64,000 nucleotides of DNA, from the NCBI GenBank assembly GCA_020055645.1, contig CM034546.1, positions 14,074,001 through 14,138,000 on the forward strand, written 5' to 3'. Positions 1 to 63,807 of the stretch are shown piece by piece. The notes under the pieces are model-generated. The model saw only the letters and a program-made list of their open reading frames with translations, searched no databases and had not been told where the DNA came from. The position numbers and the translations under genes were made by a program. This DNA comes from Tomocerus qinae. Lineage: Eukaryota; Arthropoda; Collembola; Entomobryomorpha; Tomoceridae. Numbering within the stretch: the first letter of the stretch is position 1; every line of letters begins with the position of its first letter.

Positions 1-297
1 TTATGATAAATTACTGCTGTTGGGTAAATACACTCTTTGAAAGTTTTGCAAATTTACTAAATCATTATATTCATGTACAGATGTAATTGACGAAGTTTTA
101 AAGGTAAATTGCTAATAGGCAAGTTTGGTTTTGAATACAAAGTATGTAGTTTTCCAAAAAATTTTCATGTAATACAGACTATTTCATAAAAATTAGAATT
201 GGTAACTTAAAAACTTTTGTAAATATTGTTCTATAAAGTACAAGTGGTAGTGGTAGTAGAGTAGAAACTAGAAAAAAGTTAAATATTTTATATAGAT
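1..297. other. AT-rich non-coding flank
   Basis: No gene, RNA or repeat is recognised here. The frame of the integrase that follows is closed by a TAA at 280-282, so the retroelement similarity begins only around 298-301. This stretch is therefore host sequence, or unrecognisable element sequence, upstream of the truncation point. Confidence 0.5.
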
Positions 298-1443
298 AAT
301 TATACTCTCCAGTCTGATGTCCTTCGTCAACTTCATGAAACTCATCCTGGTATAGTTCGTATGAAGTCCATTGCCCGTCAATATGTGTGGTGGCCGGGTA
401 TAGACAATGACATTGACAATTTGGTGAAAAGTTGTGTTTCTTGTGCGGAGCATAGAGCCAATCCTCGTGTTGCTCCTCTCCATCCCTGGTCGTATCCAGA
501 GAGGGCTTGGCAGCGTCTGCACATAGACCTCGCTGGTCCTTTTTGCAACAATATGTGGTTAATTGTTGTTGATGCTTTCTCCAAATGGCCCGAAGTGTAT
601 AACATTGGTCATGACTCTACGTCGGGGAAAGTCATTAGTTGTGTTCGCGAAACTTTCTCTCGTTTTGGCATTCCTGAAACCATTGTCTCTGATAATGGCC
701 ACCAGTTTGTGTCAAAGGAATTCAGCGAATTTTGTGTGCGGAATGGAGTCAGTCACACTACCAGCAGTGCTTACCATCCTCGTAGTAATGGGGAAGCCGA
801 GCGTTTTGTACAGTCGTTTAAAAACGCATTAAAACGGGGTGACAAGTCCAATGTTAATTAGTCGCTGTGCAATTTCTTGTTGAATTATCGCACAACTCCC
901 CATAGTACTACTGACGTGTCACCGTCAGAGTTGTTGTTCAAGTTTCGGCCTAAGACTCTTATGGATCTTATTTGTCCGGATGTCCATACTCGGGTTCGTG
1001 TGAAGCAGGAGCTGCAACAGGAATCTTTCCAGGGAAAGTCTTCCCCTCGTGATTTCCAAGTCGGTCAATCAGTGTGGGTCCAAACTTTCTCTGCAAACTC
1101 CCAGAAGTGGTCTAAGGGTACCATAGTTCGTTGTGTGGGTCCTGTTTCCTATCATGTAGATGTCGCGGGTCGTGTCATGAAACGTCATGTGGATCATATT
1201 TTATCAGGGGAAGTGGCGGAATTTATTCCCACCCAGATAAATGTTCAGCCAGGGCCGTCTCCCCGACCATCTGCCCCCTCCACACCAGTGAAGGTGGAAA
1301 GCGGTAGTGCACCTCCGTCTCCGTCTGTTAACGAGGCCACTACACCCCCTCCTCCACCAACCACTCCACCAGTGTCTCCGTCGGGAGCAGCACATCGTCC
1401 GCAGCGTAAACGTATTCCCATTGATCGTTTACAGTATACCTAG
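298..1443 (+). pseudogene. Gypsy integrase fragment with in-frame stop
   Basis: This is the integrase part of a Gypsy pol polyprotein, the enzyme that joins element DNA to the host genome. The frame is open from about 283, so the ATG at 361 is internal. An HHCC zinc finger comes first (His residues in LHETHPG before 361, then CVSC near 433-444). The catalytic triad follows: Asp at 526-528 (HIDLAGPF), Asp at 691-693 (SDNGHQF) and Glu at 799-801 (NGEAERF). The last two are 35 residues apart, which is the D,D(35)E pattern. A TAG at 859-861 breaks the frame. The same frame continues with LNYRTTPHSTT and a GPY/F-like module at about 1105-1164 (KGTIVRCVGPVSYHVDV), then a Pro/Ser/Thr-rich tail. Loss of the upstream pol domains plus the stop make it a dead copy. 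Confidence 0.9.
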
Positions 1444-3305: not shown

Positions 3306-3345
3306 ACTATATAAAATGGGAGCACACTTTTTATATCATTCATAA
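3306..3345 (+). promoter_or_regulatory. Candidate core promoter of the CARD/VLIG-like gene
   Basis: A TATA box (CTATATAAAATGGG, about 3307-3320) lies about 30 bases upstream of an initiator-like TCATTC near 3339. The first supported ATG is at 3570, which leaves a 5' UTR of about 230 bases. The site rests on motif and spacing alone. Confidence 0.4.
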
Positions 3346-3569: not shown

Positions 3570-3704
3570 ATGAATATTAATGAGGAAATAGAATTGCTAA
3601 CATCACATATGGTTTACATTTGCCAAAATCTCAGCAATATTAATCTGTTTTTAATTTACCTTGAACAAAATAAAATCTTTTCTCGTGACGAAAGCGAAGA
3701 AGTG
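3570..3704 (+). CDS. First coding exon: N-terminal half of a CARD-like domain
   Basis: An ATG in good context (AAAATGA) opens 45 codons that run in frame into a consensus 5' splice site, GTAAGT, at 3705-3710; the exon ends in phase 0. The peptide begins MNINEEIELLTSHM and ends LEQNKIFSRDESEEV. The spacing of hydrophobic residues, and the ending of the third helix (I-F-S-x-D-E-x-E-E-V), follow helices 1 to 3 of caspase recruitment domains such as that of APAF1, which mediate homotypic contacts in death and immune signalling complexes. The exon carrying helices 4 to 6 was not found with confidence. The next plausible coding sequence on this strand is the VLIG-like gene, so this is most simply its first exon, but the joining is inferred. 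It could instead belong to a separate small CARD gene. Confidence 0.5.
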
Positions 3705-5063
3705 GTAAGTTTTTAATTCTAAACTCTATACCTTATTTTTGTACATTGCATATAAGTAAACTCATTATTTGCCTTCCAAATTCTTCTACTAAACCCTCGT
3801 TAAACTCGTTAAATTCGCAAAATCAACCAACCCAAAAAGTGTCTAGTGTTTTACTCTTTCGTTGTTAATATATGCCTAAGGATTCATCTCTAATTTATAT
3901 TATTATAAATATTTTATTCTGGTAACGACGAAATATCTGTTTGGTTGGTGATGTGTAAGATGTTTTGGACCTAAATAAACCCCAAATATTACGTAACCTT
4001 CATTTCGCCTAATGTCATTTATTCATGTAGTTTTATAAATCTTTTTAATTTCGTAGTTTTATTTAGAAAATCAACGAGAAGTTTTAATATTATCAACTAA
4101 ATATAATGCATTGAATTAAAATAAATTTCCAACGCACAACCATAATTATACGTCAACTTCCGTTCTGGACGTTTTAACCTCGCAAGCGGCTGTGTGTGGA
4201 AAAGGCTAGTAACTATACTACACGTACACGGTATAAATCGCAAGACCATGATGCGTTCGCCGAATGTTGTAATGATAAATTGTATAAAAATATTTAAATT
4301 TTACTCTCAGCAGGTCATGAAATATGAATAGTGTGAATGAAAGCAAAAGCCCATAACGCCGAATTTTTCAAGTTATAGGGATTAAAAATGTGACATGTTA
4401 CAAACAACCTAATACCAAATAATATTATTGCTGTTTTTAGTGAAATCAATTAAAAATCATTTTACGTTTTAAAACTATAATAATATACCCAAATTGTAGT
4501 GGATAGGACATTTTTAATATATTTAATACATTTACATGTACTCCCTATGAATGTAGGCAGTTCATATACAGAATATATATCCTCCCTTAAGGAACCAAAT
4601 AGCCTATCTCCACTTTTCGTTTTGTGTACGAAATAGCTTAAATCCATTTTTCGTTTTGTGGACGAAATAGACTAAATCCATTTTTCGTTCTGTGGACGAA
4701 ATAGACTAAATCCATTTTTCGTTTTGTGGACGAAATAGCCTAAATCCATTTTTCGTTTTGTGGACGAAATAACCCATCTCCATAGGCTAGACACTCTCTA
4801 CATACATGGCTATGGTGTTTAGGCTATTTCGTCCACAAAACGAAAAACAGATTTAGGCTATTTCGTACACAAAACGAAAAGTGGAGATAGGCTATGTTCC
4901 TTAAAGGACGATATATATGTAGTGCAGTCGTCGTAAAATAAAACGAAATTTGGAGAGGGAATTAAAGGCTGGATAGATGGAAGGCATTCTTCCCATCAAC
5001 CAAATTATTAAGTAAAGTGTCAAAAAAATTGTGTATTGAAGAAACCAAGAAATTGGCTGGAAA
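3705..5063 (+). other. Putative first intron of the CARD/VLIG-like gene
   Basis: This begins with the GTAAGT donor and holds a large foldback element at 4573-4918. Short open stretches between 4920 and 5080 (for example the frame through 4966-5083, with KKLCIEETKKLAGKW) may include the missing CARD exon, but no good acceptor with a pyrimidine tract was seen. The remainder is AT-rich with no recognised feature. Confidence 0.35.
4573..4918. mobile_element. Foldback MITE with internal 34-bp tandem repeats
   Basis: The left arm (from ATATATATCCTCC at 4573) and the right arm (ending GGACGATATATAT at 4918) are near-perfect inverted copies over about 75-100 bases. Both include CTATCTCCACTTTTCGTTTTG or its complement. 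Inside the left half, a 34-bp unit repeats about five times (unit starts at 4644, 4678, 4712 and 4746, with a partial copy before). Each unit contains its own small palindrome, TTTCGT...ACGAAA. There is no coding capacity, so it is non-autonomous. No target-site duplication could be assigned. Confidence 0.75.
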
Positions 5064-5250
5064 ATGGCAGAAATGTCGTTAGGGCAAATCTATGATAAAG
5101 TCATTAAAGACCCGGATTTGGAAATAGTTTTTCGAGATCCTCCCATTGTGTCAGATATGAATTTATCCAACCTCGAAATTTTACGAAGGGACCCATTTCT
5201 TTTGCATGTCAGTGGCTCCAATAATGACATGATAATGTTTACGACAACAA
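5064..5250 (+). CDS. Possible exon of the VLIG-like gene
   Basis: The frame is open from 5040 to 5279. It contains an ATG at 5064 in strong context (GAAAATGG), encoding MAEMSLGQIYDKVIKDPDLE and about 50 more residues. I recognise no domain. A possible donor (ACAACAA/GTAATC) at 5251 ends the exon in phase 1, which agrees with an acceptor at 5925-5926 that would open the long exon in the required phase. A second donor candidate (AATAAG/GTTATC) lies near 5266. The exon may be internal, or it may carry an alternative translation start for the GTPase without the CARD. No clear acceptor precedes it. Confidence 0.4.
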
Positions 5251-5926
5251 GTAATCTGAATAAGGTTATCTGTCTGTGACAAATGGTGTATTTAATAAAC
5301 TGAACACAAAATAAGCAAATAATTAACTTGGCAGCCCTATCGTTAGTGTATGCGATTTTACCCAATAAAGTGCAAGGAATTTATTTTGAATTCCTTAAAA
5401 TACTTTTAGATAATTAGCCTGAGATAAGTCTACATATTATATTATACACTTCTATACTTAAACATTTACATACATTATTTTAAATTCTCATTGTTGTATT
5501 TATCCCGCTGGGCAAGCAGCGCTTCGCTCAGCCGTCCAGGTAACCGAATATTTTCTTTGCCTGTCCGGTAACTAGGTTACCGTAAAATTACATTGTCTGT
5601 ATGCCTGACCTACTCTTGTATTAGTTATTACTATCTTGTTAATGTATAACTACCTTGCATATCCTATTTAAACTTATCTATATTAATGTAAACATCTGCT
5701 TTACAACGTTGTGATTGACAGGTCAGTTATCGATATTGGTTGGTAAAAGTAGGTGAGCTAACAAATCTGACCTGTCAATGTTTGATAACAACATTAGCAA
5801 TTTGAAGTTATACCATAGTAGCATTTACCCAGCTTTCAAAGCACACATGCACTATAAGCTACCCAAGCCAAGTACGTCATCATGTATTATTATTATACAG
5901 TATTATTAATTTATAGGCAAATGAAG
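5251..5926 (+). other. Putative second intron of the VLIG-like gene
   Basis: This is AT-rich. It contains a 13-bp perfect inverted repeat (ATTGACAGGTCAG at 5714-5726 and its complement at 5767-5779) around a 40-base loop. Two acceptor candidates precede the long exon: TTATAG at 5911-5916, which would read into a stop at 5922-5924 in the needed frame, and GCAAATGAAG at 5917-5926, which fits the phase but has a poor pyrimidine tract. Confidence 0.35.
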
Positions 5927-8900
5927 GGTTTTGGTACCTGGTTATGATGGTGTGGGAAAAAGTGGTTTCATGAAGGGCAAAACTAGTTTTGTTCTGGAAG
6001 AAAGTCTGAGAAATTTATTAACAGGCGACGATGATAACAATAATGAGAATGATGAAGAGCACCAAAAATTAAACAAATTGGACATTTTTGCTTCATTTGT
6101 TGCCTCTGCTGATGTTACTGTACTGGCAGATATATTTCGAATACTAGCTATGTTTCCAATAGCACTGCCACTCATATTGCCTGATATCAAAAATCAGTCA
6201 AAAAAAAACAACGCCACATATAATGGTGCTTTCAGCACTTCAGAAATGTCTTATTAGATGGGAAAACAACGAAAATGAGATCGGAGAAAATTTATTGTTT
6301 GAAAGTCCATTCAAACTAATAACTGCATTACGTATTGGCAAGAGTGATAAAGGAAAAAGTCAATTTCTAAATCGCATTTTTAAGCATGACTATGTATTCC
6401 AATGCAAATGGCAACCAGGAGGAGATAGTGGCCCCGCTAACTGCCATCATGGTAGTGTTGAGTTCATTTGGCTCGCCAAAGATACGTGCAACCAAACCAT
6501 TTGGAAAGCAATTGAGCCTGAAATGAAGAAGAACGAACTGGTTTTGTTAGCAAACTTGCATGGAGACGCAACAAAGTATCATGACATACTGAAAGCATTA
6601 GCACCAGTTACGTCAACTTTCATTGCATTTGTAATGCCGAAAACAAACAGGGAAAGTAAACATGATATTGACAAAATATGCAAAAATGTCTTGCATTTTT
6701 ATGTCGATGAAAGTCAAAAGGATGCCAATATTCCAGTACTCTATACAGAACGCATTAATAATGCAGACGAAACATCAAAAAAGCTAAAAAAGCAGATTTC
6801 ATTAGCGATAAAAAACGGCAAGCTATTGGAAAAGGCCACCACTTCAGGAACAAAAACCATTAGTTGCATTAACAAATTAGTAACCAAAGAATCGGACACA
6901 TTTTTAAGCCAATTAGGAATATTACAGATTACCGATAAAAAACAACAGCGGCATACTGAGATTGCAAAAGATTTCTAAACAGGAAAGCAAATCAAATAGC
7001 AAATGGCAAGTATGGGAAAGAAACTACGCGCTACAACAATTGATGATGAAATTTATTGACGTAATTCATTTTTCAGTAGACAAGCGGATAATTGCTGTAT
7101 CACACATTGAAACTCAACTTCGCATTATGGCATATGACGAGAATTTTGAAAACTCCAGTTTGCTAAGCAAACTGGAGAAGAAGTACGACCTACTCCGTAC
7201 TGCAGATGACTCGCATCCTAAGTTTCTTTATCTTGATATACAAATGAAGCGTTTAAGGGAAAATTCAGGCAAAAGTTTGACTGTTGAAGATTTTTTTCGT
7301 GAGCTTGCTTTGCTTTTTGAAATAGTAAAAGGTCATCAAGTACCAGAAAAATTGATGTCTTACGATCAATGGCCAAATATGTATGCTGAATTGGTACTCA
7401 GCGGCCAGCCTCTTGAAATATTGGATGGAGACATGTGCTCAATACCCAATGTGTGGATAGAAGCAGTCTGCCATTCCATTTGTATTAAACAACCAGGTCT
7501 AAGGGTTTTTGTGGTCAGTATACTTGGATTACAATCTTCGGGGAAATCGACTCTGTTAAACGCTTTATTTGGTTGCAAATTTGCATCAAGCATTGGCAGA
7601 TGCACAAGACGTTTATACATGAGGTATATACCCCTAGATAAAGAATTTCGTAAGAAATTAAGCATTGATGCCCTGCTGGTAATAGATACTGAAGGTTTAT
7701 TCTCCCCAGAAACAATGAAAGATCCTGATTTGTTAGCAAAAGACGAATCTATTTCCGCTTTTGCTATGGCGATTAGTGACTTTACTCTATTAAACGTGTT
7801 TGGTGAAAGTTATCTAGGGATTGTTGGCATTTTGCAGATTGTCATGTTTATCATGGCTAAAATGGACGAGTGTGATATTTCTCCAGATATTTTACTTGTC
7901 CAAATAGTCGCTGAAGGTGAACAGAAAAATAAACTAGCTGAGGGTGTGGCTATTTTCTGCAATGCTCTGGATTCTGCAATCGAATTTATACAAACTAAAG
8001 AAGTTGTATTGGATGTAACTACAGCTTCTTTATTTAATCTTAAGGACAGAATAAGAAATAATTTATTACTTTGTCAAGTCAGGCCATTCAAAGAGGGATC
8101 CTCATTGCAATCACCACCTTCAGAAAACTATCACAAAGACATAGTTTCGTTACGTTCCAGAATATTTACAGAAGTTTTGAAAAGAAACAGAGGAATATAT
8201 TTTTGCTCTTGGCATAGGCCTTTGAAGCGGTATTGGAAAACAGTTGAAAATGACGAATTTGCCCAATTTAAAAGCATTAGACAAATTCAAGATTTCATTG
8301 AACGGTCTACACAAATAGGTTCTGTAAAGGCGGAATTAAATGCGGCAATGCAGAACCATGAAATAATTTGTAAGCAACATATCGTTAATTGGATTTATTC
8401 GGAAAACAAGTATGAATTGAAGAAAGTGAAGCATGAAATTAGGGCACATCTTTCACTTTTACCGAAAGAGTGTGGCAGTTGTAGCTCAAATGCCATAAAA
8501 CATTATGCGTGTAAGCATTGCAAACAAGCATCAAGAATATCCAATTTGCTTAGCTCTGCAGGGGGAGCCCTAACAAATGAAAATGTTGATAATCTTGAAG
8601 AATTTCCTTACACAGATGGGCGGTTACAAATGACTGCAGAGGAATGCAAAGATAAAAACAATTTGGAAAACTATTTCGAGTCTTTAAAAGACAATCTTTT
8701 CGATAAATTGATTGAGTTCTATCGATCAACAAAAACAAAATATGAAAGTCCAAACGAAATCGACCTGGTTATAAGAGACTCAATTAAAATGCGAATCCAA
8801 AATACTTCCTTTCCAACTGATACTTTAATTTGGCAAGACCTTCTGGCAGAATTTCAAAGAAAATACCCAATGACATAACTGTGTCTGAAAAATACGCATT

Positions 8901-9350
8901 CACCGCAATTAAAAACGCTTTCAAAGACGACCAGTATTTTAAAACAGCTCTGACCCCTGAGCGCTTAAAAAGATCTCCTTATCTTTCAAATGAAATGGCG
9001 ATACAAGAATGGTACGGGTTTAGAACTAATTTAAGCCTTTAGAAAAAGATCAAAAAGAGTCGTTATTGGACGAATTAAATAACTATGTTAGAGGGGTAAG
9101 ACCTCCAATTGGGGACAAACGAGAGCCCAACTTTCAAATACTGGCGCAAGAATTTAAAGACCAGCTTCAGAACATTACAAAAATTTGGCAAAAAAGTCAA
9201 AATGTGAAATTTACTACAGCTTTTTCAAAAGACGTTACGTTAGCTGGTCTTCAACTATTATACAAGCACTTGCTGTCACTGAAAGAGGACTGGAATAGCA
9301 AACACCATCAACAGTACATTTTACGGTACCGAGAACATGAGATAAAGCAG
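5927..9350 (+). CDS. VLIG/URGCP-type giant GTPase, long exon (frame broken four times)
   Basis: This encodes the body of a very-large-inducible-GTPase-like protein, a family of cytosolic GTPases related to GBP/dynamin-type G proteins. The order of conserved segments matches human URGCP/VLIG1: FPIALPLILPD at about 6150-6185; ITALRIGKSDKGKSQFLN near 6325-6370; a GSVEFIWL segment near 6450; PLEILDGDMCSIPNVW near 7410-7455; the P-loop GLQSSGKST at 7526-7552; RCTRR near 7600; and DTEG at 7685-7696. No NKxD motif is seen. A CxxC...CxxC pair lies at 8471-8521. Coding similarity moves between frames near 6200-6208 (an A9 run), 6965, 8850-8875 and 9030, while each segment stays open (one for over 600 codons). 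The exon ends at AAGCAG/GTAGGT. Either consensus indels or recent decay would explain the breaks. Family assignment is strong; functionality is unknown. Confidence 0.85.
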
Positions 9351-9924
9351 GTAGGTCATATGTATATTGAGAAATACATCACAAATATTATAAAAATTTA
9401 ATATTGAATAATCCCTTAAGATTTTTGTAGTTACAAATACCTTTGATGTTACAGTATATTTTTGCATATATTATAGCAATACAAAATCCAGGTGCCATAT
9501 TGAGTTTTGTTATATGACATTTTAGACCTTACCATTTGATTCGATTTTTCTTATTTTTATGGCAAAAGTGGTTAAAGTAAAAGAGTGATTGTATATTTGT
9601 AAAATCCTCCCTGGAAACATCCAGGGCGTACCAGGTCCCAATTTTAAAAGATTTATGTGGCCTTACCTAATTAAAACAATAACATTGATTGGTAATGGTA
9701 CAACCACTGCCTTACTTTAACCGAGGAAATAAAGAGTGTGTAGGCTTCCATTTCTGTTGACAAAACTAGGACCAAAAAATTTAAACATTATTATTTGTTT
9801 ATTTAAAAGGCATTACCTTGCCTACTTTCATTTTCATTTGGTGGCATTTGGTATTCTTGAACATTAAAATTAATACGAAGTGCAATACTTTTTATACATT
9901 AAAGTTTTAGAATTTTGGGCTAAA

Positions 9925-10322
9925 TCCAGTTATATTAGCGCACTTTAGAATGGACCGATATATAGCTCATTCTTAAGATCTCATCGAGTACGTAACGAAT
10001 ATAGTGTTTATTTTGGGGGCAACCCGCCAAATAAGAAAGTTATGATTATGATCGATCAAAATTGAAGATCAAAGATGACAGTCGTTACAAGTTTAATTCA
10101 ACATGAAAAACAAAACAACGATGGTTTAAAGAACTTTGTAACTCGCCTTTTTCTGAAAATATGGGTTTGGAAATAGACATAATTTCAACTTTGATCGACC
10201 AAAACTTTCTTATTTGGGGGGTTGCATACAAAATAAATACCATATTCGTTACGCACTTAATGAGATCTTTCGAATGAGCTATACATTGTTGTATTTTCTA
10301 GTGCGCCATTATACTAAGAATG
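9925..10322. mobile_element. MITE with long terminal inverted repeats
   Basis: About 140 bases at each end are imperfect inverted copies. The left arm reads AGTTATATTAGCGCAC... and the right arm ends ...GTGCGCCATTATACTAA. The internal matches include ATAGCTCATTC, AGATCTCAT, CGTAACGAATAT and CCAAATAAGAAAGTT. There is no ORF. The element lies wholly inside an intron. A TTTTAGAATTTTG sequence is found on both sides (9905 and 10342), reflecting insertion into or next to the short tandem repeat there. Confidence 0.7.
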
Positions 10323-10331
10323 TTCCGAAGT

Positions 10332-10419
10332 TAGACATTTAGTTTTAGAATTTTGACATTTAGTTATAGAATTTTGACATTTACTTTTAGAATTTAGACA
10401 TTTATTTTTAAATTTTTAG
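10332..10419 (+). repeat. 21-bp tandem repeat carrying candidate 3' splice sites
   Basis: About four degenerate copies of GACATTTAGTTTTAGAATTTT run up to the acceptor. Each copy contains one or two TTTAG strings. The last one (10415-10419) is the acceptor that keeps the reading frame open. Confidence 0.6.
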
Positions 10420-11449
10420 AAAATAAGTCATCTGTTGCAACCCGAAATTTCTATCAATGTAAAGATTCAGGCCGAATCAATTAGCAAGAAAATCATGAAT
10501 GCTTTAACAAATATGAGCATTGAATCCACTCAAATGGAAATGTGTGAACAAATAAACGATACGGAAGTATGTCAAGAAAAAATGAGACTCTATTTCCTAA
10601 TGGAATTGGCAGAACAAATTTTCAACGACGATTATAAAAACGCTATTAAATATTTTGCATCGCCATCAGAGCATGTAATCTCTTGGTACCAAAACTGGCT
10701 CAAACATCATATGAAAGAAAGCCTAAAAATAGAAGAGCATTTAAAAATTGCCTTTGAAAAGGAATTTAAGGAATTACTTAAGGATATTGAAATATCCAGT
10801 GACTATGACGACCTATTAAAATCACTCAATAGGTATCTAAATCAAAACGATGATTTTGTGTGTGATTTATCAATTGATGCAATAAATGATACAACACTCC
10901 ATGAATTAAAACAGCATTTGATGTCAATGTTAAAAAAGAGTCAGACAAGTCACATTGTCAAAATGGAAGCACACCATTACAAACAGATATATGATAAAGG
11001 CATGGAAAATTTAGGCTGTACTAAAACATGTCCAGATTGTGGAGCTATTTGTTTTGGATCTAAAGATCACGAAAAACTTGAAAAAGAGTACAGGCATCAT
11101 TTTGGTGTCCATCAACCGATGGGCCTGATTGGAAAATTGGATAAAGATAAACAATTTGACGCTACCATTTGTAAAACTGTAGGCAAAAGCAACATGAAAA
11201 AAATGTTGAAAAAAATCAACGTCTTTCAATCAGAAAAATGGATTAACATTGATCATTTGGTAGAAGAATATCGTACCCTGGCTAAATGGTTTTTCTATAG
11301 ATTGAATAAAGACCTATCCAAATTTTACGATGCTAAAGAAACTTCACCACAAAAAATGAAAACAATGGGTTTGATAGATTTGGAAGAAGAATTACCAACA
11401 GTACTGACCACCATGGTATCCAGCATGGAAACATTAGACTTTTCTGGAG
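10420..11449 (+). CDS. VLIG-like GTPase, C-terminal exon
   Basis: An exon of 343 codons that is fully open and in phase with the preceding exon across the 9351-10419 intron. It is largely helical and Lys/Glu-rich. At about 11017-11115 it carries the VLIG C-terminal Cys/His motif: CTKTCPDCGAIC, then conserved His residues in YRHHFGVHQPMG. This corresponds in position and pattern to the CPFCxxxC...H...H...P segment near the end of vertebrate VLIG1, probably a zinc site. The region after the motif is shorter than in vertebrate VLIG. The exon ends at TCTGGAG/GTGAGT in phase 1. If the donor is not used, translation stops at 11473-11475, followed by AATAAA at 11506-11511, so an alternative short C terminus is possible. 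Confidence 0.8.
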
Positions 11450-11505
11450 GTGAGTTTAAATCTTTTAAATTTTAATATATTTTTGGTAATTTAAAGTAAC
11501 TAACA

Positions 11506-11511
11506 AATAAA
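11506..11511 (+). terminator. Polyadenylation signal AATAAA inside the last intron
   Basis: AATAAA lies 31 bases after the stop used if the 11450 donor is skipped. It would allow a transcript ending within the last intron. Motif evidence only. Confidence 0.35.
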
Positions 11512-11528
11512 GTTTCATAATTTTACAG

Positions 11529-11590
11529 TTTTAACAAAAATACTGAAATTTAAAGAAGATGATTTTCCTTTTACAAAGATTCTTATGTAG
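11529..11590 (+). CDS. Short terminal exon of the VLIG-like gene
   Basis: The acceptor TTTTACAG ends at 11528, after a 79-base intron. Joined in phase 1, the exon reads VLTKILKFKEDDFPFTKILM and then TAG at 11588-11590. The small intron with GTGAGT and TTTTACAG ends and the correct phase support it. There is no recognisable domain. Confidence 0.5.
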
Positions 11591-16048: not shown

Positions 16049-16070
16049 TATAAATATTTAGATATATATA
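16049..16070 (+). promoter_or_regulatory. Candidate TATA region of the receptor gene
   Basis: TATAAAT at 16049-16055, followed by a second TATATATA, lies about 100 bases before the receptor ATG at 16152. Motif and position only. Confidence 0.35.
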
Positions 16071-16151
16071 GGAATAACATCAGAATCAAAAGTTAAACCG
16101 AAATTTCGATCCATTTCATTCGAACCACATAAGAATATAAAATTTTCAAAA

Positions 16152-17491
16152 ATGATTGCTTTTATAATAGAAAAGAAGAAGAAATTGTTGAACATCTTTG
16201 CTGAAAGTAGCTCATTTTTACAAAGTTTTGGCTTTTATGTGTCTTTTTTTCATACTTGTAGTATTCTTCCGTTTTCATGGGATAAATTAAACCAAACATT
16301 ACACATTTCTAAATCATCAAATAGAAAATACCCGCTTAAACTATGCATTTACTTTACCCTCATTTGTTTCATCTTTCATCTTTCATTTCTAGTCAAGGAT
16401 ATCGCAACGGCTCAAAAAAATGTTTATGAGAAAATGTGGTTCTTATTTTGGACTTTATTTTATTTGCAAATACATATAGTCTGCCGGAGTTTGTCCAACC
16501 GAAAGTACGAAATCGTGTACGTCATCAACCAAATATCAAAATTGAATCAACGTTCAACAAGTATGAAAATATTTCAAACATTATAGTAAAATATATAAAC
16601 TTATTATCATAATTGTAGTATTCGTTTATACCTTTTAACAAATTTTTAATATATGTAACATCAAAATTTTAGGTTTTTCTAGCATTCAAGAAAAACTGGT
16701 ATCCAAATTGGAAAAGATAATATCCTACGGGTTTTTGGCATTTTTTCCATACATGCCTTGCATAGTGGCATTGTTGTGTATAGTCAGTAAAAATCAAATG
16801 CTACCAAATTACTTCTACAAAACGTTTGAAATTCATTTCGTACATTACGCCATTCTTTCCATTCTGGATTTCGTCTTCAAAGTAGTTGCAAGCTGGGTAT
16901 TTTTCCTCACTATGTTTTACAATATCATCTACGTTCTTTATTGTCAAAAATGGTCGGAACAACTAAGGTGAGATCAATTAATTTGTAAATAAATTTATAT
17001 TAATACAATAGATATATAATTTTATTTTAATATTTATTAGAGACTTGTCCCTAAAACAAAAAATAAAGGGATACAAAAAACTGCAAGTTCTCAACACTGT
17101 ATACAATTCTAGTTGTGAGAATATGTACCTGCCAATCTTTGTATTCAACTTGGTATCTGTAATCTCAATATATAGCTTTCTAGTGTTACGGTTTCATAAA
17201 ATTTTGACAACTTTAGAAATATGCCTTTTGGTTTTGTCGAATATCACTGTAGTAATTATTCTCACGGTTTTGATTCTTGGGGCTGGAAAATTGCACGCAG
17301 TCAGCACAAAAATCAAAATCGAATTACGATCAAACGTGAATAAAAGGATGACACGCAAAATTGTTTTTGCTGTGCTTCCTTTCGGAGTTCGATATGGAAC
17401 TCTCAAAAACGTAAAATACAAACATCTCACAGACTGTTATGAAGCCACGACAAGCTGCTTAGTTACGTTGTTGATATTTGCGTCACGATAG
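16152..17491 (+). CDS. Gustatory-type seven-transmembrane chemoreceptor (three exons)
   Basis: The exons are 16152-16560, 16673-16967 and 17041-17491. The introns are GTATGA...TTTTAG (phase 1) and GTGAGA...TTATTAG (phase 2); both keep the frame exactly. The protein is about 385 residues, a normal length for arthropod gustatory receptors, ligand-gated channels of sensory neurons. Hydrophobic spans fit seven helices: around FYVSFFHTCSILPF, YFTLICFIFHLSFLV, WFLFWTLFYLQIHIVC, FLAFFPYMPCIVALLCIV, VVASWVFFLTMFYNIIYVL, IFVFNLVSVISIYSFLVL and ICLLVLSNITVVIILTVLI. The PFSWD segment after helix 1 and the C terminus FGVRYGTLKNVKYKHL...TTSCLVTLLIF resemble divergent arthropod Gr-family ends, but the canonical TYhhhhhQF motif is degenerate. 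The ATG context (AAAATGA) is good. There are no stops or shifts, so it looks functional. Ligand unknown. Confidence 0.75.
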
Positions 17492-33875: not shown

Positions 33876-35801
33876 GAAAATTCGCTTTTCAATCTTGACT
33901 TTAAATAACTGAATATTCTGGAGCTTGAGGCCAAGACCCTTTTAAGTCACTCAAATTTTGAATGACCCCACTAATAACCATATTTTAATGTCATCAAACT
34001 GAATTTCGTCGTAGTTCTATGTATGCCTGCTATATTTTTTGATGATTTAACCCTACCATATAGTTGTATTCGTAGAATGATACTCAACATGAAAATTTAC
34101 CTAACAATCTTGGATTCAAAAAATTGAAAATTCTAGAGCTTTGAAGGAGCCCTTAATTTAAGTCACCCAAATTTTAAATGTCCCAACTTACACTACCTTC
34201 TTTGTGTCCCCTTAATTCGGTACCTTTAGTTTTATGAGTTTCTGCATACAAATATTGATAATTTAACCTTATCACATACTTGTATTCGTAGACAGATACT
34301 CAATATGAAAATTCGCTTTTCAATCTTGAATTTGAATAATTGAAAATTCTGGAGCTTGAGGCCAAGACCCTTTTAAGTCCCTCTAATTTTGAATGACCCC
34401 ACTAATAACCATATTTTCATGTCATCAAACTGAATTTCGTCGTAGTTCTATTGTATGCTTGCTATATTTTTTGATGATTTAACCCTACCATATAGTTGTA
34501 TTCGTAGAATGATACTCAACATGAAAATTTACGTTTCAATCTTGGATTCAAAAAATTGAAAATTCTAGAGCTTTGAAGGAGCCCTTAATTTAAGTCACCC
34601 AAATTTTAAATGTCCCAACTTACACTACCTTTTTTGCGTCCCCTTAATTCGGTACCTTTAGCTTTATGTGTTCCTGCATATAAATATTGATAATTTAACC
34701 TTATCACATACTTGTATTCGTAGATTGATACACAATATGAAAATTCGCTTTTCAATCTTGAATTTGAATAATTGAAAACTTTGGAGCTTGAGGCCAAGAC
34801 CCTTTTAAGTCACTCAAATTTTGAATGACCCCACTAATAACCATATTTTAATGTCATCAAACTGAATTTCGTCGTAGTTCTATGTATGCTTGCTATATTT
34901 TTTGATGATTTAACCCTACCATATAGTTGTATTCGTAGAATGATACTCAACATGAAAATTTACCTAACAATCTTGGATTCAAAAAATTGAAAATTCTAGA
35001 GCTTTGAAGGAGCCCTTAATTTAAGTCACCCAAAGCACAATATCCGGTTTGGCTGGACTTTCCGGCCCGATAGACCATTGTTTATATTTAAAACGCATTG
35101 TCGGGTTCGGGCCCATGGAAATGTTAAGTGACGTCATATAGTAAAAAAAGTATTTCACCTATGGTGACCACTTTTTGATGATAAACAGAAGTATTGTATT
35201 CTGAAGCAAGCACAGGGCTGTATACTACCCATCCTCGCCCTGTTAAGGGGCTGTTCCTGAATTAATTCGAAAGTTTGAAATATTTCGAAATTCAAACAAA
35301 AATATGCATTTAATGTTAGCCGAAACCCATAGCCCTACCAACCGACAACCTAACTGTATACGGAGATATGCAAAATGCAAACACTCGACAGTAGTGCAAT
35401 ACTCAAAATAACAAATATTTACACCCAAGTTCTTAATTTTGAATGGGATTTGTAGCTGTTTAACAATGGGAGCCAATACCAACAGCCATCTGCAGAATGT
35501 TCATGAATGTAGGCTCCTACCACTTTTGGTGATGCCAACAGGATGAGTTTTGTTTTGCTCTCCTTCTGCAGCTTCTCCCAGCTAAAAGTTAAAAGGTTGA
35601 GATAAGTTGGAGGCTAATACATTGAAATGCCTGTACAAAAATCTCGAGTACGGTTGAATGGTAGTAAAAAGTGTTAATGGAAATTTGAAGTACGGATCTA
35701 GACCTCGAACCCAAGGCTCTTTGTTAATTTTCAAAATGTGGCTTTGTGACCGAGAAATCGGCACCGACATTTTCGCGCCATTAAAAAAACCCGCGCGAAA
35801 A

Positions 35802-35882
35802 TCGGTTTTCGGGTCTGCGGTATTCGGTTTTGGGTCTACGGTATTCGGTTTTCGTGTCTACGGCTTTCGGGTCTCCGGTAGG
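35802..35882. repeat. Short 21-bp tandem repeat in the transposon
   Basis: About 3.5 copies of a TCGGTTTTCGGGTCTACGGTAT-like unit. It is much more GC-rich than the surroundings. Confidence 0.7.
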
Positions 35883-36277
35883 TCCCTTCAATTTGTCGGA
35901 TATTCATAGCCTTAACATGCGGTCAAGTATAAGGCAGTTTACATTTTAAACTTTTTCATGAAACCTTCTTGACATTTGCTTCAAAATTAGCAAAAGTCCT
36001 GGCCCGATTTTCTAGTGTAGTACATGGTCGGAATGGCAAACGGATTGGCTAGGCTGCATCCGAAAAAATTATCGATATTCCTCCCATATTTTAAACTGTT
36101 GAAATCTTGACAAAATTTGGACAAATGTTCAATCATTGCTGAAGCCAAATCATTTAAGAAAATCGATGTAAACCAAATGTAAACATTTCGTTATTTTGAG
36201 TATTGCACTACTGTCGAGTGTTTGCATATATCCGTATACAGGTAGCTTGTCGGTTGGTAGGGCTATGGGTTTCAGCT

Positions 36278-36676
36278 ATGTATGTATGTTATATGGGGTA
36301 CACAGTGATAGTACTGGGCGCAGACCTCATTACGGGCCTATTGCCAACTCCCTCAACACTGGTATTGTTTGTTAATTAATACCCGAGAAGCCAAAGGCTG
36401 TTATTTACGAGTCACTGTTGTAGGACTGTTATCGGAAGTCTACTAGCCCAACAAAGACAGGTTATCCAAGCTACTCTCGTAGTCGAGACGAGGTATCCAT
36501 GTGATGGCCCTTGTATCTGCGGGCTCGTACTTGTCCTAATTCCATAATAACAACTCAAACACTCGCCTTTAAACAGCAGTCGGCCATTTCGCCCAGCAAA
36601 AGAATCGAACTGATAATTAAAGCACGCATTGATTAGTCAGACCACTGAGTACTCTACCAAACCAACGTGGCTGGGC
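36278..36676 (-). mobile_element. tRNA-derived SINE nested in the transposon
   Basis: About 400 bases interrupt the right arm of the inner palindrome. They are flanked by an 11-bp target-site duplication, GGGTTTCAGCT (36267-36277) and GGGTTTCGGCT (36677-36687). Read on the minus strand, the element starts near 36676 and has an A-box-like TGGTAGAGTACTCAGTGG and a B-box-like AGTTCGATTC about 40 bases later, the internal pol III promoter of a tRNA head. It ends in a short ATAC/ATGT repeat tail at 36278-36290. The intact left arm of the palindrome gives the empty site. This is a textbook nested insertion. Confidence 0.8.
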
Positions 36677-39600
36677 GGGTTTCGGCTAACATTAAAAGCA
36701 TATTTTGTTTGAATTCGAAATATTTCAAGCTTTTGAATTAATTCAGGAACAGCCCCCTTAATATGGAGAGAACTTGTCGTATACAGCCCCTGTACGTTCA
36801 CCTTTTGTTGCTGTGAGTCAAGAGATTAGAATTGTTACATTGTACTAGATTGGTAGATGACTATGGTAACTGAAAATCAGAAGGACGATTTATGACGTCA
36901 TTATCAAATTAGCACATTCAATTCGCCTTTGTGCCTGTATGTGCATATAAAATGTATAAAAGCTTAACTAAAAATTTGTTTCGACTGCAATATTTCCGAA
37001 ACTAGAGATAGGAACCTCGTAAAACTTACGCATGTCCTTCATCAGTGTGCAATCTCTGACTGATCCAAATTTCATGAGATTCGGAGCTTGCAGTATATGT
37101 TTTTTTTAATTAATTGTTTCAGAATTTTTATTTTCCTATCTTAATACACAGTAAAGTTGTCTTCTTAAAAAATTAATTACTCAAGTTTCAGAGATAGGAA
37201 CTCGCTGATTTCTACATATATGAGGCTTAAATATGTAAGCATCAAGCACAAAAAATTTCAGCCCTATATTCGTTTGCAGTCACAATTTTTTAAAGGGCCG
37301 AACATAGCCCGTAATTCCGGATATATTGCTTTTAAATGTCCCAACTTACACTACCTTTTTTGTGTCCCCTTAATGCATTACTTCTAGTTTTATGTGTTTC
37401 TGCATATAAATTTTGATAATTTAACCTTATCACATACTTGTATTCGTAGATTGATACACAATATGAAAATTCGCTTTTCAATCTTGAATTTGAATAATTG
37501 AAAACTTTGGAGCTTGAGGCCAAGACCCTTTTAAGTCACTCAAATTTTGAATGACCCCACTAATAACCATATTTTAATGTCATCAAACTGAATTTCGTCG
37601 TAGTTCTATGTATGCCTGCTATATTTTTTGATGATTTAACCCTACCATATAGTTGTATTCGTAGAATGATACTCAACATGAAAATTTACCTAACAATCTT
37701 GGATTCAAAAAATTGAAAATTCTAGAGCTTTGAAGGAGCCCTTAATTTAAGTCACCCAAATTTTAAATGTCCCAACTTACACTACCTTTTTTGTGTCCCC
37801 TTAATTCAATATTTCTAGTTTTATGTGTTTCTGCATATAAATATTGATAATTTAACCTTATCACATACTTGTATTCGTATATTGATACTCAATATGAAAA
37901 TTTACTTTGCAATATTGAATTTGAATAATTGAAAATTCTAGGGCTTGAGGCCAAGACCCTTTTAAGTCCCTCTAATTTTGAATGACCCCAACAATAACCA
38001 TATTTTCATGTCATCAAACTGAATTTCGTCGTAGTTCTATGTATGCTTCCTATATTTTTTGATGATTTAACCCTACCATATAGTTGTATTCGTAGAATGA
38101 TACTCAACATGAAAATTTACCTAACAATCTTGGATTTAAAAAATTGAAAATTCTAGAGCTTTGAAGGAGCCCTTAATTTAAGTCACCCAAATTTTAAATG
38201 TCCCAACTTACACTACCTTTTTTGTGTCCCCTTAATGCATTACTTCTAGTTTTATGTGTTTCTGCATATAAATTTTGATAATTTAACCTTATCCAATACT
38301 CGTATTCGTAGATAGATACTCAATATGAAAATTCGTTTTCAATCTTGAATTTGAATAATTTAAAATTCTGGAGCTTGAGGCCAAGACCCTTTTAAGTCCC
38401 TCTAATTTTGAATGACCCCACTAATAACCATATTTTCATGTCATCAAACTGAATTTCGTCGTAGTTCTATGTATGCTTGCTATATTTTTTGATGATTTAA
38501 CCCTACCATATAGTTGTATTCGTAGAATGATACTCAACATGAAAATTTACTTTTCAATCTTGGATTCAAAAAATTGAAAATTCTAGCGCTTTGAAGGAGC
38601 CCATAATTTAAGTCACACAAATTTCGAATGTCCTAACCAATACTCCCATCTCTTTGTTCCCTTAATTCATTTCTTCGTAGTTTTAGGCATTCCCGCATAT
38701 AAATATTGATAATTTATTCTCATTATATAGTTGTATTCGTTGAAAGATACTCAATATGAAAATTCGCTTTTCAATCTTGACTTTAAATAACTGAATATTC
38801 TGGAGCTTGAGGCCAAGACCCTTTTAAGTCACTCAAATTTTGAATGACCCCACTAATAACCATATTTTAATGTCATCAAACTGAATTTCGTCGTAGTTCT
38901 ATGTATGCTTGCTATATTTTTTGATGATTTAACCCTACCATATAGTTGTATTCGTAGAATGATACTCAACATGAAAATTTACCTAACAATCTTGGATTCA
39001 AAAAATTGAAAATTCTAGAGCTTTGAAGGAGCCCTTAATTTAAGTCACCCAAATTTTAAATGTCCCAACTTACACTACCTTTTTTGTGTCCCCTTAATTC
39101 AATATTTCTAGTTTTATGTGTTTCTGCATATAAATATTGATAATTTAACCTTATCCAATACTCGTATTCGTAGATAGATACTCAATATGAAAATTCGCTT
39201 TTCAATCTTGAATTTGAATAATTAAAAATTCTGGAGCTTGAGGCCAAGACCCTTTTAAGTCCCTCTAATTTTGAATGACCCCACTAATAACCATATTTTC
39301 ATGTCATCAAACTGAATTTCGTCGTAGTTCTATGTATGCTTGCTATATTTTTTGATGATTTAACCCTACCATATGGTTGTATTCGTAGAATGATACTCAA
39401 CATGAAAATTTACCTAACAATCTTGGATTTAAAAAATTGAAAATTCTAGAGCTTTGAAGGAGCCCTTAATTTAAGTCACCCAAATTTTAAATGTCCCAAC
39501 TTACACTACCTTTTTTGTGTCCCCTTAATGCATTACTTCTAGTTTTATGTGTTTCTGCATATAAATTTTGATAATTTAACCTTATCCAATACTCGTATTC

Positions 39601-62108: not shown

Positions 62109-63321
62109 ATGTGAATCTCAAAAGAAGAGATGAAGCAAGACACTAACTCCCAGTTTATTTAATTTTGAAAGTTTAATTTTATTTTCTTTCTTTAGCCAAC
62201 CGGTTTTGAATTCTTCTTCAGGGCTATAACAATTAGTCAGAAATAATGAATACATTAAATTGAATTTTACAGTACGAAATGAACAAAGTCAAAACAATAA
62301 TATATTTGTAAATAATATAATTTTATATTATGCCATTGGGGATTACCTTAAAACTGAATTATTATTAAATGTAACTTATGGCCTAATTAATAATATAATT
62401 AAAGTCAAATTATTAATATTTTTACATATTAAGTTATATTCGTGGTCCAATCAGTCAGTTTAAATTTAACCACTAAGTTAACATGTCACATTGCATTTCT
62501 CACGAAACCTTCAAATATTACATATAAAAGTTATTAGTACTAAATGAGACTGAGACAATGAAATCTTCATATATAAATTAATTACCAGAAACTAACTCTG
62601 CAATATTTTTAGTTCGAGTATATGAGGTTATCATTACCGTTTCTGAAATGGCCTTACTACATTTAATGTTTTTACATTTATCAAGCTCAGTGTAAATCAT
62701 TTCCCTAATATTTCTGAAATCTTGAATTGACCTGTAAAAAGGAACTATACAGTAAGTTTTAGATAAAATATTGGTGTGTTCTTCATTAACCTTGTTAACG
62801 ATATTGTATTTAGACATAATTTCGGGGTTATTTATTCTAAAGTAAGTTAAATGTAATTCACTTTTAGGTATTAACAATGTAGTTCTGTCAATATCTTTTA
62901 ACTTATTAAATGTATTAACTAGTACATCTTTAGGATAACATCTAGTTTCTAAATTATACAGCATTTCACCTAATTCTATTTGCCTATTATTTAAATCCGA
63001 TTCAATTCTATTCACTCTTAATCCTTGTGAGTATGGTAGTGAATTTTTTAAATGACAAGGATGATTAGAATAGTAATGCAAGTATTTTTGTCTTGACATA
63101 GGTTTTTTATACAAAGAGGTACTTATACTATTATCTTGATTGAGTTGAATATTAACATCAAGGAAATTGATTTTCGCATCAATGAAAGAATAGGTGAAAT
63201 CTAAGAAAGAGTGAACAAATTTTGCTTTTAGCCAACTATCAATATATTGAATTTCTAAAGAGTTAACAATCATAAAGATATCATCTAGAAACCGTTTATT
63301 AAATACTATTTCTTTTATATT
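62109..63321 (-). mobile_element. 5'-truncated Penelope-like retroelement
   Basis: This interrupts an A monomer: the satellite stops at CACCCAAAT and resumes at TGTCCC, with about six bases of the target missing. On the minus strand it carries the last third of a Penelope-type reverse transcriptase and then about 465 bases of non-coding 3' sequence ending next to 62109. The coding part is cut at its 5' end just upstream of the catalytic motif, as expected for incomplete target-primed reverse transcription. The 3' sequence has CCTGAAGAAGAATTC near 62210-62225, a string similar to ones seen in some Penelope/DIRS 3' regions (recollection, not checked). Confidence 0.8.
62578..63318 (-). pseudogene. 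Penelope-like reverse transcriptase, C-terminal fragment
   Basis: Reading from 63318 down, the frame is open through the catalytic motif (KRFLDDIFMIVNS, the YxDD equivalent, about 63271-63309). It then gives INFLDVNI, TSLYKKPMSRQKYLHYYSNH, LPYSQGLRVNRI and finally YTRTKNIAELVSGN before TAA at 62580-62578. These are the palm end and thumb of Penelope-type reverse transcriptases, in order. The ATG at 63273 is internal, since the frame continues upstream to the insertion edge. No GIY-YIG endonuclease follows in any frame before the 3' sequence. The reading frame has no stops or shifts, so the insertion is fairly young, but the copy cannot be active. Confidence 0.85.
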
Positions 63322-63807
63322 TGTCCCAAATTACACTACCTTTTTTGTGTCCCCTTAATTCATTACTTCTAGTTTTATGTGTTTCTGCATATAAATATTG
63401 ATAATTTAACCTTATCATATACTTGTATTCGTAGATTGATACTCAATATGAAAATTCGCTTTTCAATCTTGAATTTGAATAATTGAAAACTCTGGAGCTT
63501 GAGGCCTAGACCCTTTTAAGTCACTCAAATTTTGAATGACCCCACTAATAACCATATTTTCTTGTCATCAAACTGAATTTCGTCGTAGTTCTATGTATGC
63601 TTGCTATATTTTTTGATGATTTAACCCTACCATATAGTTGTATTCGTAGAATGATACTCAACATGAAAATTTACTTTTCAATCTTGGATTCAAAAAATTG
63701 AAAATTCTAGAGCTTTGAAGGAGCCTCTAATTCAAGTCACCCAAATTTTGAATGACCCAACTAATACTCCCTTCTTTGTGTCCCTCTAATTCAATTCTTT
63801 GATGTTT
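63322..63807. repeat. Satellite right edge, last dimers
   Basis: About 1.1 dimers follow the retroelement. The last monomer (from about 63665) drifts: CCTCTAATTCAAGTC, CAACTAATACTCCC and CTTTGATGTTTTAC replace the usual A sequence. Similarity ends near 63807, where unique AT-rich DNA begins. Divergent terminal monomers are typical of tandem-array edges. Confidence 0.85.

What the first reader, a model, noticed from the sequence alone, without database searches (positions are those of the whole stretch)
3570..11590. CARD-like exon upstream of a VLIG/URGCP-type giant GTPase in an apparent arthropod
The VLIG signature is clear in the sequence (FPIALPLILPD, PLEILDGDMCSIPNVW, GLQSSGKST, DTEG, C-terminal CPDC...H...H). 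VLIG/URGCP proteins are known best from vertebrates, where VLIG is interferon-inducible. Here a separate exon 1.5 kb upstream, on the same strand and with its own TATA box and consensus donor, encodes what looks like CARD helices 1-3. A CARD-VLIG fusion would couple a giant GTPase to death-fold signalling, a plausible invertebrate immune sensor or effector. The joining of the two parts is inference.
Basis: partly seen in the sequence, partly recalled or inferred. Interest (0 to 1): 0.75.

Follow-up and report, generated by a model that had tools for sequence, protein, structure and literature searches.

The report
Broken CARD and giant GTPase pair
In an unnamed animal genome, the first half of a death-signalling (CARD) domain sits just upstream of a broken copy of a giant immune-type GTPase, and an unbroken sister copy elsewhere has the same layout, which hints at a new CARD-GTPase gene and revealed a very large family of CARD receptor-like genes.

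Summary
Both parts are real. The 45-residue exon (3570-3704) is CARD helices 1-3 and is one of 133 matching exons in the window's own genome; 88 of the 133 have an NB-ARC exon within 10 kb downstream on the same strand, that is, CARD-NB-ARC (Apaf-1/NLR-like) genes. The downstream gene is VLIG/URGCP, one of about 20 copies. But this copy is no intact CARD-VLIG gene: no second CARD exon was found, the VLIG N-terminus is missing, and the VLIG reading changes frame four times, whereas 9 of 10 fetched paralogs keep one frame through the GTPase region. The joining was tested indirectly. Of 20 VLIG loci two have a same-strand CARD exon within 15 kb upstream: the window and C1:67.33 Mb (V67). Among the copies sampled these two are sisters (100/99). 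V67 has a complete two-exon CARD 10.7 kb upstream of an intact VLIG frame. So a CARD-VLIG lineage is plausible (about 0.5), the window being its decayed member. Co-inherited neighbours or chance remain live; no transcript was available. The larger surprise is the CARD-NB-ARC expansion in an apparent arthropod.

The parts
3310..3316 (+). TATAAAA, possible TATA box 260 bp before the ATG
   Evidence: sequence; such motifs are common in this AT-rich DNA (13 of 19 kin loci have a TATAWA within 400 bp, at varying distances)
3570..3704 (+). CARD exon 1 (helices 1-3), first coding exon, ends at a phase-0 donor
   Evidence: Pfam CARD 16.4 bits; 38.6 bits to a profile of 19 other copies; 133 matches in own genome counting itself, most ending at query residue 43-45
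3705..3710 (+). splice donor GTAAGT, same aligned place as in kin loci
4594..4895 (+). 34-bp repeats forming inverted arms (transposon-like) inside the gap between CARD exon and VLIG
5040..5276 (+). 79-codon open frame of unknown origin between the two parts
   Evidence: no Pfam match; genome searches for it did not complete
5925..6203 (+). VLIG piece 1 (frame 3 of the window), includes FPIALPLILPD; N-terminal region of paralogs missing before it
6208..6951 (+). VLIG piece 2 (frame 1), URGCP domain PF25496
   Evidence: E 1.4e-13; profile positions 1097-1342
6950..8857 (+). VLIG piece 3 (frame 2), GTPase domain with GLQSSGKST and DTEG
   Evidence: PF25683 192.7 bits, E 1.1e-56; profile 1345-1872
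8863..9030 (+). VLIG piece 4 (frame 1), placed by continuity only
   Evidence: no profile match
9033..9354 (+). VLIG piece 5 (frame 3), ends at donor CAG|GTAGGT
   Evidence: weak profile match 2061-2128; E 1e-5 to V67
9355..10419 (+). intron (donor GTAGGT, acceptor TTTTTAG)
   Evidence: sequence
10420..11475 (+). VLIG C-terminal exon with CPDC...H...H, ends FKF-stop
11506..11511 (+). AATAAA, possible polyadenylation signal
   Evidence: sequence

Best explanation
The window holds the remains of a CARD-VLIG gene: a CARD first exon, borrowed from a very large CARD-NB-ARC gene family of the same genome, placed in front of a VLIG/URGCP GTPase. The arrangement arose before the duplication that gave the window copy and its sister V67. 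V67 keeps both parts (CARD exons 1 and 2, then an intact VLIG frame); the window copy has lost CARD exon 2 and the VLIG N-terminus and has four frame changes, so it no longer encodes the whole protein. Shown: homology of both parts, decay of the window copy, sister relation among the sampled copies, CARD upstream in both sisters and at none of the other 18 VLIG loci within 20 kb. Inferred: that one transcript joins them, and that the intact form works by the GTPase assembling on a target or under GTP control, so that its CARDs cluster and recruit CARD partners such as caspases or adaptors.
For: CARD; V67 exons 1+2 joined pass Pfam's cut-off, 29.7 vs 23.9 bits. VLIG. Of 20 VLIG loci two have a same-strand CARD exon within 15 kb upstream, and neither has an NB-ARC exon near (next in my list at 386 and 74 kb). 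The two are sisters: 92/94 on the GTPase region, 100/99 on full length, with two alternatives rejected at p-AU 0.008 and 0.0275 (the groups were named after seeing the first tree). By shifted placement a VLIG locus has such a CARD at a rate of about 0.015 (0.295 per 20 loci). The neighbouring 5-member clade instead starts with another domain and has no CARD upstream. In V67 the VLIG frame opens right at an acceptor-like TTTTAG|ATG, and exon 2 has a possible phase-0 donor.
Against: No transcript. In V67 10.7 kb separate the parts, the VLIG frame could start at its own ATG, and CARD exon 2 meets a stop four codons after the supposed donor; one kin (L016) has an exon 2 that reads straight into a stop, so CARD-only genes probably exist. 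38 of 133 CARD exons have no NB-ARC within 20 kb, so orphans are not rare. The CARD exons of the window and V67 do not group (44 columns, unresolved), and by pairwise score the window exon is nearer to NB-ARC-linked L010/L011 (101) than to V67 (77). The window row has a long branch, and nine VLIG copies, all less like the window's GTPase than V67, were not in the trees. Apart from the CARD exon nothing convincing is shared between the two upstream regions. The window was chosen because it has a CARD, so only V67 counts as a test.
Confidence: 0.5

Rival explanations
1. Two separate genes inherited as neighbours: a small CARD-only gene and a VLIG gene lay side by side and were copied together; the window holds remains of both. 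They never make one protein.
For: CARD exon 2 of L016 reads into a stop codon, V67's into a stop four codons after a possible donor; the V67 VLIG frame has an ATG at its very start; sister relation and shared order fit equally.
Against: The gap differs widely (2.2 and 10.7 kb); in the fetched V67 region no other open frame of 200 aa lies between on that strand; donor and acceptor phases in V67 are compatible with one gene.
Confidence: 0.28
2. Chance: the window CARD exon is a stray first exon of a CARD-NB-ARC gene, like other orphans in this genome, and lies upstream of an unrelated VLIG pseudogene by accident.
For: 133 CARD exon-1 matches, 88 with NB-ARC within 10 kb, 38 without any within 20 kb; best pairwise CARD kin are NB-ARC-linked L010/L011; no exon 2 found here; transposon-like repeats in the gap.
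Against: Needs a second accident at exactly the sister VLIG locus (rate about 0.015 per locus; 9 of 200 shifted placements give two or more CARDs with VLIG within 15 kb).
Confidence: 0.2
3. The frame changes are assembly errors and the window gene is intact.
For: The first change lies at a run of nine A; no stop codon interrupts the long pieces; one fetched paralog (V61) also shows several frames and V23 one change near its end.
Against: 9 of 10 fetched paralogs keep one open frame through the URGCP-GTPase region and 8 of 10 up to the intron, with similar homopolymer runs, up to 10; the N-terminus is also missing and no CARD exon 2 was found; the branch is the longest of the genome's copies in the trees, though V69's is nearly as long (1.52 and 1.46).
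Confidence: 0.1

Closest known systems
VLIG/GVIN and URGCP giant GTPases (PF25683, PF25496)
   Same: URGCP and GTPase domains, G1 motif, C-terminal cysteine/histidine motif, collinear with a profile of three fungal and one lamprey member
   Different: Broken reading frame; N-terminus missing; none of the 138 proteins listed carries a CARD in its precomputed Pfam list
Apaf-1 / CED-4 / Dark (CARD-NB-ARC)
   Same: The CARD exon family mostly sits before an NB-ARC exon; the model of one such protein (L049) matches Apaf-1 best in the PDB (E 4e-10, though TM-score only 0.28 of the query)
   Different: One NB-ARC protein is recorded for fly and worm (PMC2246300, Table 1), here 126 and 157 matches in two searches; the window exon has no NB-ARC behind it
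Metazoan NLRs and plant NLRs
   Same: Adaptor domain plus STAND NTPase, large clustered family; plant NRC2 among the best structural matches
   Different: NB-ARC rather than NACHT (NACHT was not searched); C-terminal repeats not identified by Pfam nor resolved in the model
VLIG1 and VLIG2 of the prawn Macrobrachium rosenbergii
   Same: VLIG reported under that name in an arthropod (one table passage of PMC6805343)
   Different: No domain make-up in the passage seen; no CARD mentioned there

Membership tests
CARD (PF00619) | Sequence match over Pfam's gathering score | tested here: not met
   Window exon alone 16.4 bits vs 23.9; joined exon 1+2 of three kin loci 33.6, 32.1, 28.5 and of V67 29.7, all four tested over it
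CARD (PF00619) | Helices 4-6 encoded | tested here: not met
   No exon-2 match at E 1 in window 1-20500; none reported in 3705-5925 with the enlarged profile
CARD exon-1 family of this genome | Match to the family profile and same splice donor | tested here: met
   38.6 bits, window left out of the profile; donor at the same aligned residue
CARD-NB-ARC (Apaf-1-like) gene | NB-ARC exon downstream | tested here: not met
   Nearest NB-ARC match in my merged list 386 kb away
VLIG/URGCP GTPase | URGCP and URGCP_GTPase domains over cut-off | tested here: met
   PF25496 51.3 (cut-off 27), PF25683 192.7 (cut-off 55)
VLIG/URGCP GTPase | One open coding frame through the URGCP and GTPase region, as in 9 of 10 fetched paralogs | tested here: not met
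   Four frame changes in all, two of them within or between these domains
CARD-VLIG fusion | One transcript or protein with both domains | not testable with these tools
   No RNA data; layout in sister locus only
CARD-VLIG fusion | Known proteins with both domains | tested here: inconclusive
   0 of 138 proteins listed show PF00619; candidates chosen by shared words and length, and one search listed 120 of 198

The most novel reading that the evidence does not exclude
The V67 locus is a working CARD-VLIG gene, the intact sister of the window copy: a giant interferon-type GTPase wired by exon shuffling into death-fold signalling, in an invertebrate that has also expanded CARD-NB-ARC genes to around a hundred or more, many clustered at 28-38 Mb of one chromosome-size contig.
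Probability: 0.42. Interest if true: 0.8.

Novelty: new variant of a known kind. Interest (0 to 1): 0.6.

Why it matters
VLIG proteins are large and little understood. A CARD on one would give a concrete output (recruitment of CARD partners such as caspases) and a way to test what the GTPase does. The exon also led to a CARD-NB-ARC family far beyond the single NB-ARC protein recorded for fly and worm (PMC2246300), which, if the host is an arthropod, bears on whether arthropods have NLR-like receptor arsenals.

Tried and rejected
CARD second half in the window: all three plus frames of 3705-5925 with X at stops gave no Pfam hit, and seven trial joins of the exon to downstream pieces scored 15.6-18.7 bits against 16.4 for the exon alone; profile searches found nothing. 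The 18.7-bit join, to the VLIG piece, was set aside because that stretch lies where kin have part of their VLIG N-terminus. PDB sequence search with the exon gave no CARD. The N-terminal domain of the other five-member VLIG clade (WSTVPEAL...) was tested as a possible death fold: AlphaFold2 pLDDT 87, but no PDB match below E 3 and no significant Pfam family. LRR in the CARD-NB-ARC proteins: seen by eye only; Pfam has FNIP at E 0.41, the model is poor there. A shuffle set for the CARD hit was written but not run; the 109-ORF control was used instead. Literature: in ten searches (two returned nothing) I saw, in titles and starts of abstracts, no paper on a CARD-VLIG protein or on a CARD-NB-ARC expansion in arthropods. 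Folsomia genome paper PMC5490193: a term search of the main text found no NACHT, NB-ARC, caspase or CARD. Never answered: a species test with cuticle family PF00379, a genome search for the 5040 ORF and one with CARD family PF00619.

Full report
What is there. The exon 3570-3704 starts with ATG, reads 45 codons and stops at GTAAGT. VLIG follows on the same strand from 5925 to the stop at 11475. The VLIG reading passes through five successive pieces in changing frames, 5925-6203, 6208-6951, 6950-8857, 8863-9030 and 9033-9354, then an intron and a C-terminal exon 10420-11475. A profile of one lamprey and three fungal VLIGs matches these pieces in order (positions 1035-1092, 1097-1342, 1345-1872, 2061-2128, 2145-2460); piece 4 is placed by continuity alone.

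Is the CARD real? Alone it scores 16.4 bits to PF00619, E 0.0092, covering profile positions 2-39 of 85. Among 109 window ORFs used as a control it gave the best of six weak hits and the only death-fold one. The stronger test came from the window's own genome (334 Mb, 115 contigs; the window is C1:14,074,001-14,138,000). Searched with the 45 residues, it returned 133 places at E up to 10, itself included, most ending at query residue 43-45. The 20 loci cut out all have an in-frame ATG, and 19 of 20 a GTAAG or GTGAG donor at the same aligned point; L013 reads GTGGTT. A profile from 19 of them, without the window, scores the window exon 38.6 bits. In 8 of the 20 loci, which carry 1.5 kb of flank, a second conserved exon follows; exon 1 joined to exon 2 passes Pfam's CARD cut-off in the three loci tested (33.6, 32.1, 28.5 bits). 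So the window exon is a genuine first half of a CARD.

What these CARDs normally belong to. In L011 plus L049 (C1:126.096-126.105 Mb) exon 2 runs on as one frame of 903 codons, cut by the end of the fetched stretch, with the second CARD half and an NB-ARC domain (37.7 bits). Its AlphaFold2 model (mean pLDDT 55; blocks of 60-92, mostly above 75, through the NB-ARC part) matches Apaf-1, NRC2, a STAND protein and CED-4 among the best, at low TM-scores. PF00931 gave 126 matches in the genome (253 candidates, 126 scored; its control also rang over the cut-off in 3 of 14 known prokaryote genomes); a query of second CARD half plus NB-ARC gave 157 (309 candidates, 150 scored, not all listed). I merged 181 places by hand from these lists (149, leaving out a second piece of one gene, and 32 further ones). 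88 of 133 CARD exons have one of them within 10 kb downstream on the same strand, 4 of 133 upstream; on C1 84 of 125 against a mean of 2.8 and a maximum of 10 in 200 random shifts. 125 of 133 CARD and 170 of 181 NB-ARC places lie on C1, 60 and 65 of them at 28-38 Mb. The database search with the L049 protein found 22 distant proteins (24-32% identity), most with NB-ARC, DUF7779 or TPR in their Pfam lists, the two with an organism name from Streptomyces and Streptacidiphilus. PMC2246300 (passages, and Results part 1 of 2) counts one NB-ARC protein in fly, worm and human and 16 in amphioxus.

The VLIG family. The GTPase query found 20 places: the window, 18 with open frames of 904-2366 codons and no stop, and one small broken one. 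Ten paralog regions of 20 kb were fetched. In 9 of 10 the URGCP-GTPase region is one open frame, in 8 of 10 up to the intron; V23 changes frame near the end and V61 shows three frames. Similar homopolymer runs occur in them. I therefore read the window's four frame changes as decay rather than assembly error, though the first sits at nine A. The closest paralogs have about 160 to 550 residues before the point where the window starts to match; none of that is found upstream of 6063 in the window. In the public database the nearest proteins with names are from fungi that I know, by recall, as arbuscular mycorrhizal (29-35% identity, up to about 41% over part of the GTPase query) and a lamprey. 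In the trees V18, V14b and V69 and V61 (only) side with these, away from the window's clade; the root is a midpoint.

Are the two parts one gene? Among 133 CARD exons two have a VLIG GTPase match within 15 kb downstream on the same strand: the window's (3.7 kb to the GTPase match) and C1:67347445 (12.8 kb); 9 of 200 shifted placements reach two, and the window was picked for having one, so this alone is weak. But the VLIG at the second place, V67, is the window's sister among the 11 copies sampled: 92/94 on the GTPase region, 100/99 on full length with 10 copies; placing the window or V67 with the other five instead is rejected at p-AU 0.008 and 0.0275, with the caution that the groups were named after seeing the first tree and that the window row is long. 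The nine copies not sampled match the window's GTPase less well than V67 does. A fusion lineage predicts a CARD at that very locus; chance gives it at a rate near 0.015. V67 has exon 1, and exon 2 with a TTTTCAG acceptor; joined they score 29.7 bits. VLIG opens 10.7 kb downstream directly after TTTTAG with ATG. Against this: a stop lies four codons behind V67's supposed exon-2 donor, L016 shows an exon 2 that reads into a stop, 38 of 133 CARD exons lack NB-ARC within 20 kb, the two CARD exons do not group in a 44-column tree, and apart from the CARD nothing convincing upstream is shared.

Mechanism. If V67 is one gene, the likely working is that of other CARD-bearing assemblies: the GTPase oligomerises, CARDs are brought together, CARD partners are recruited. 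This step is inference from the families. The window copy cannot encode the whole protein as it stands and is best read as a relic.

Limits. Counts in the genome come from six-frame matches, not gene models, and are lower bounds. Of three papers I saw parts only: PMC2246300, PMC6805343 (one passage) and PMC5490193 (passages).

Noticed in passing
G000:C1, dense at 28-38 Mb; e.g. L011 with L049 (C1:126095600-126105378): Very large CARD-NB-ARC (Apaf-1/NLR-like) family: 133 CARD first-exon matches, 126 and 157 NB-ARC matches in two searches, 125 of 133 and 170 of 181 on one contig, many with open frames around 1000 codons.
   Followed up: partly
L031, L033, L035, L037, L039: Five VLIG paralogs begin with an unassigned domain of about 85 residues (WSTVPEALISFKDLL...LLNWD...PPWTQ.TI), partly repeated in V136; model pLDDT 87, no PDB match below E 3 and no significant Pfam match.
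   Followed up: partly
L041-L046 (V18, V14b, V69) and proteins P0001-P0004: VLIG of fungi (Rhizophagus, Gigaspora) and lamprey group with some VLIG copies of this genome, away from the window's clade; ancient spread or gene transfer.
   Followed up: no
window 20508-62108: 41-kb satellite array, unit about 431 bp made of two related halves of 215, with a GC-richer stretch at about 35000-37000.
   Followed up: no
window 283-1443: Retrotransposon integrase (PF00665, PF17921) with an in-frame stop at 859-861.
   Followed up: no
window 16062-17491: Open frames that look by eye like a chemoreceptor (hydrophobic stretches); no Pfam match.
   Followed up: no
window 62578-63330, minus: Open frame resembling a Penelope-type reverse transcriptase by eye; only Pfam hit is Cap15 at E 0.25.
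   Followed up: no
window 9931-10044 and 10200-10313: 114-nt inverted repeat inside the VLIG intron, transposon-like.
   Followed up: no
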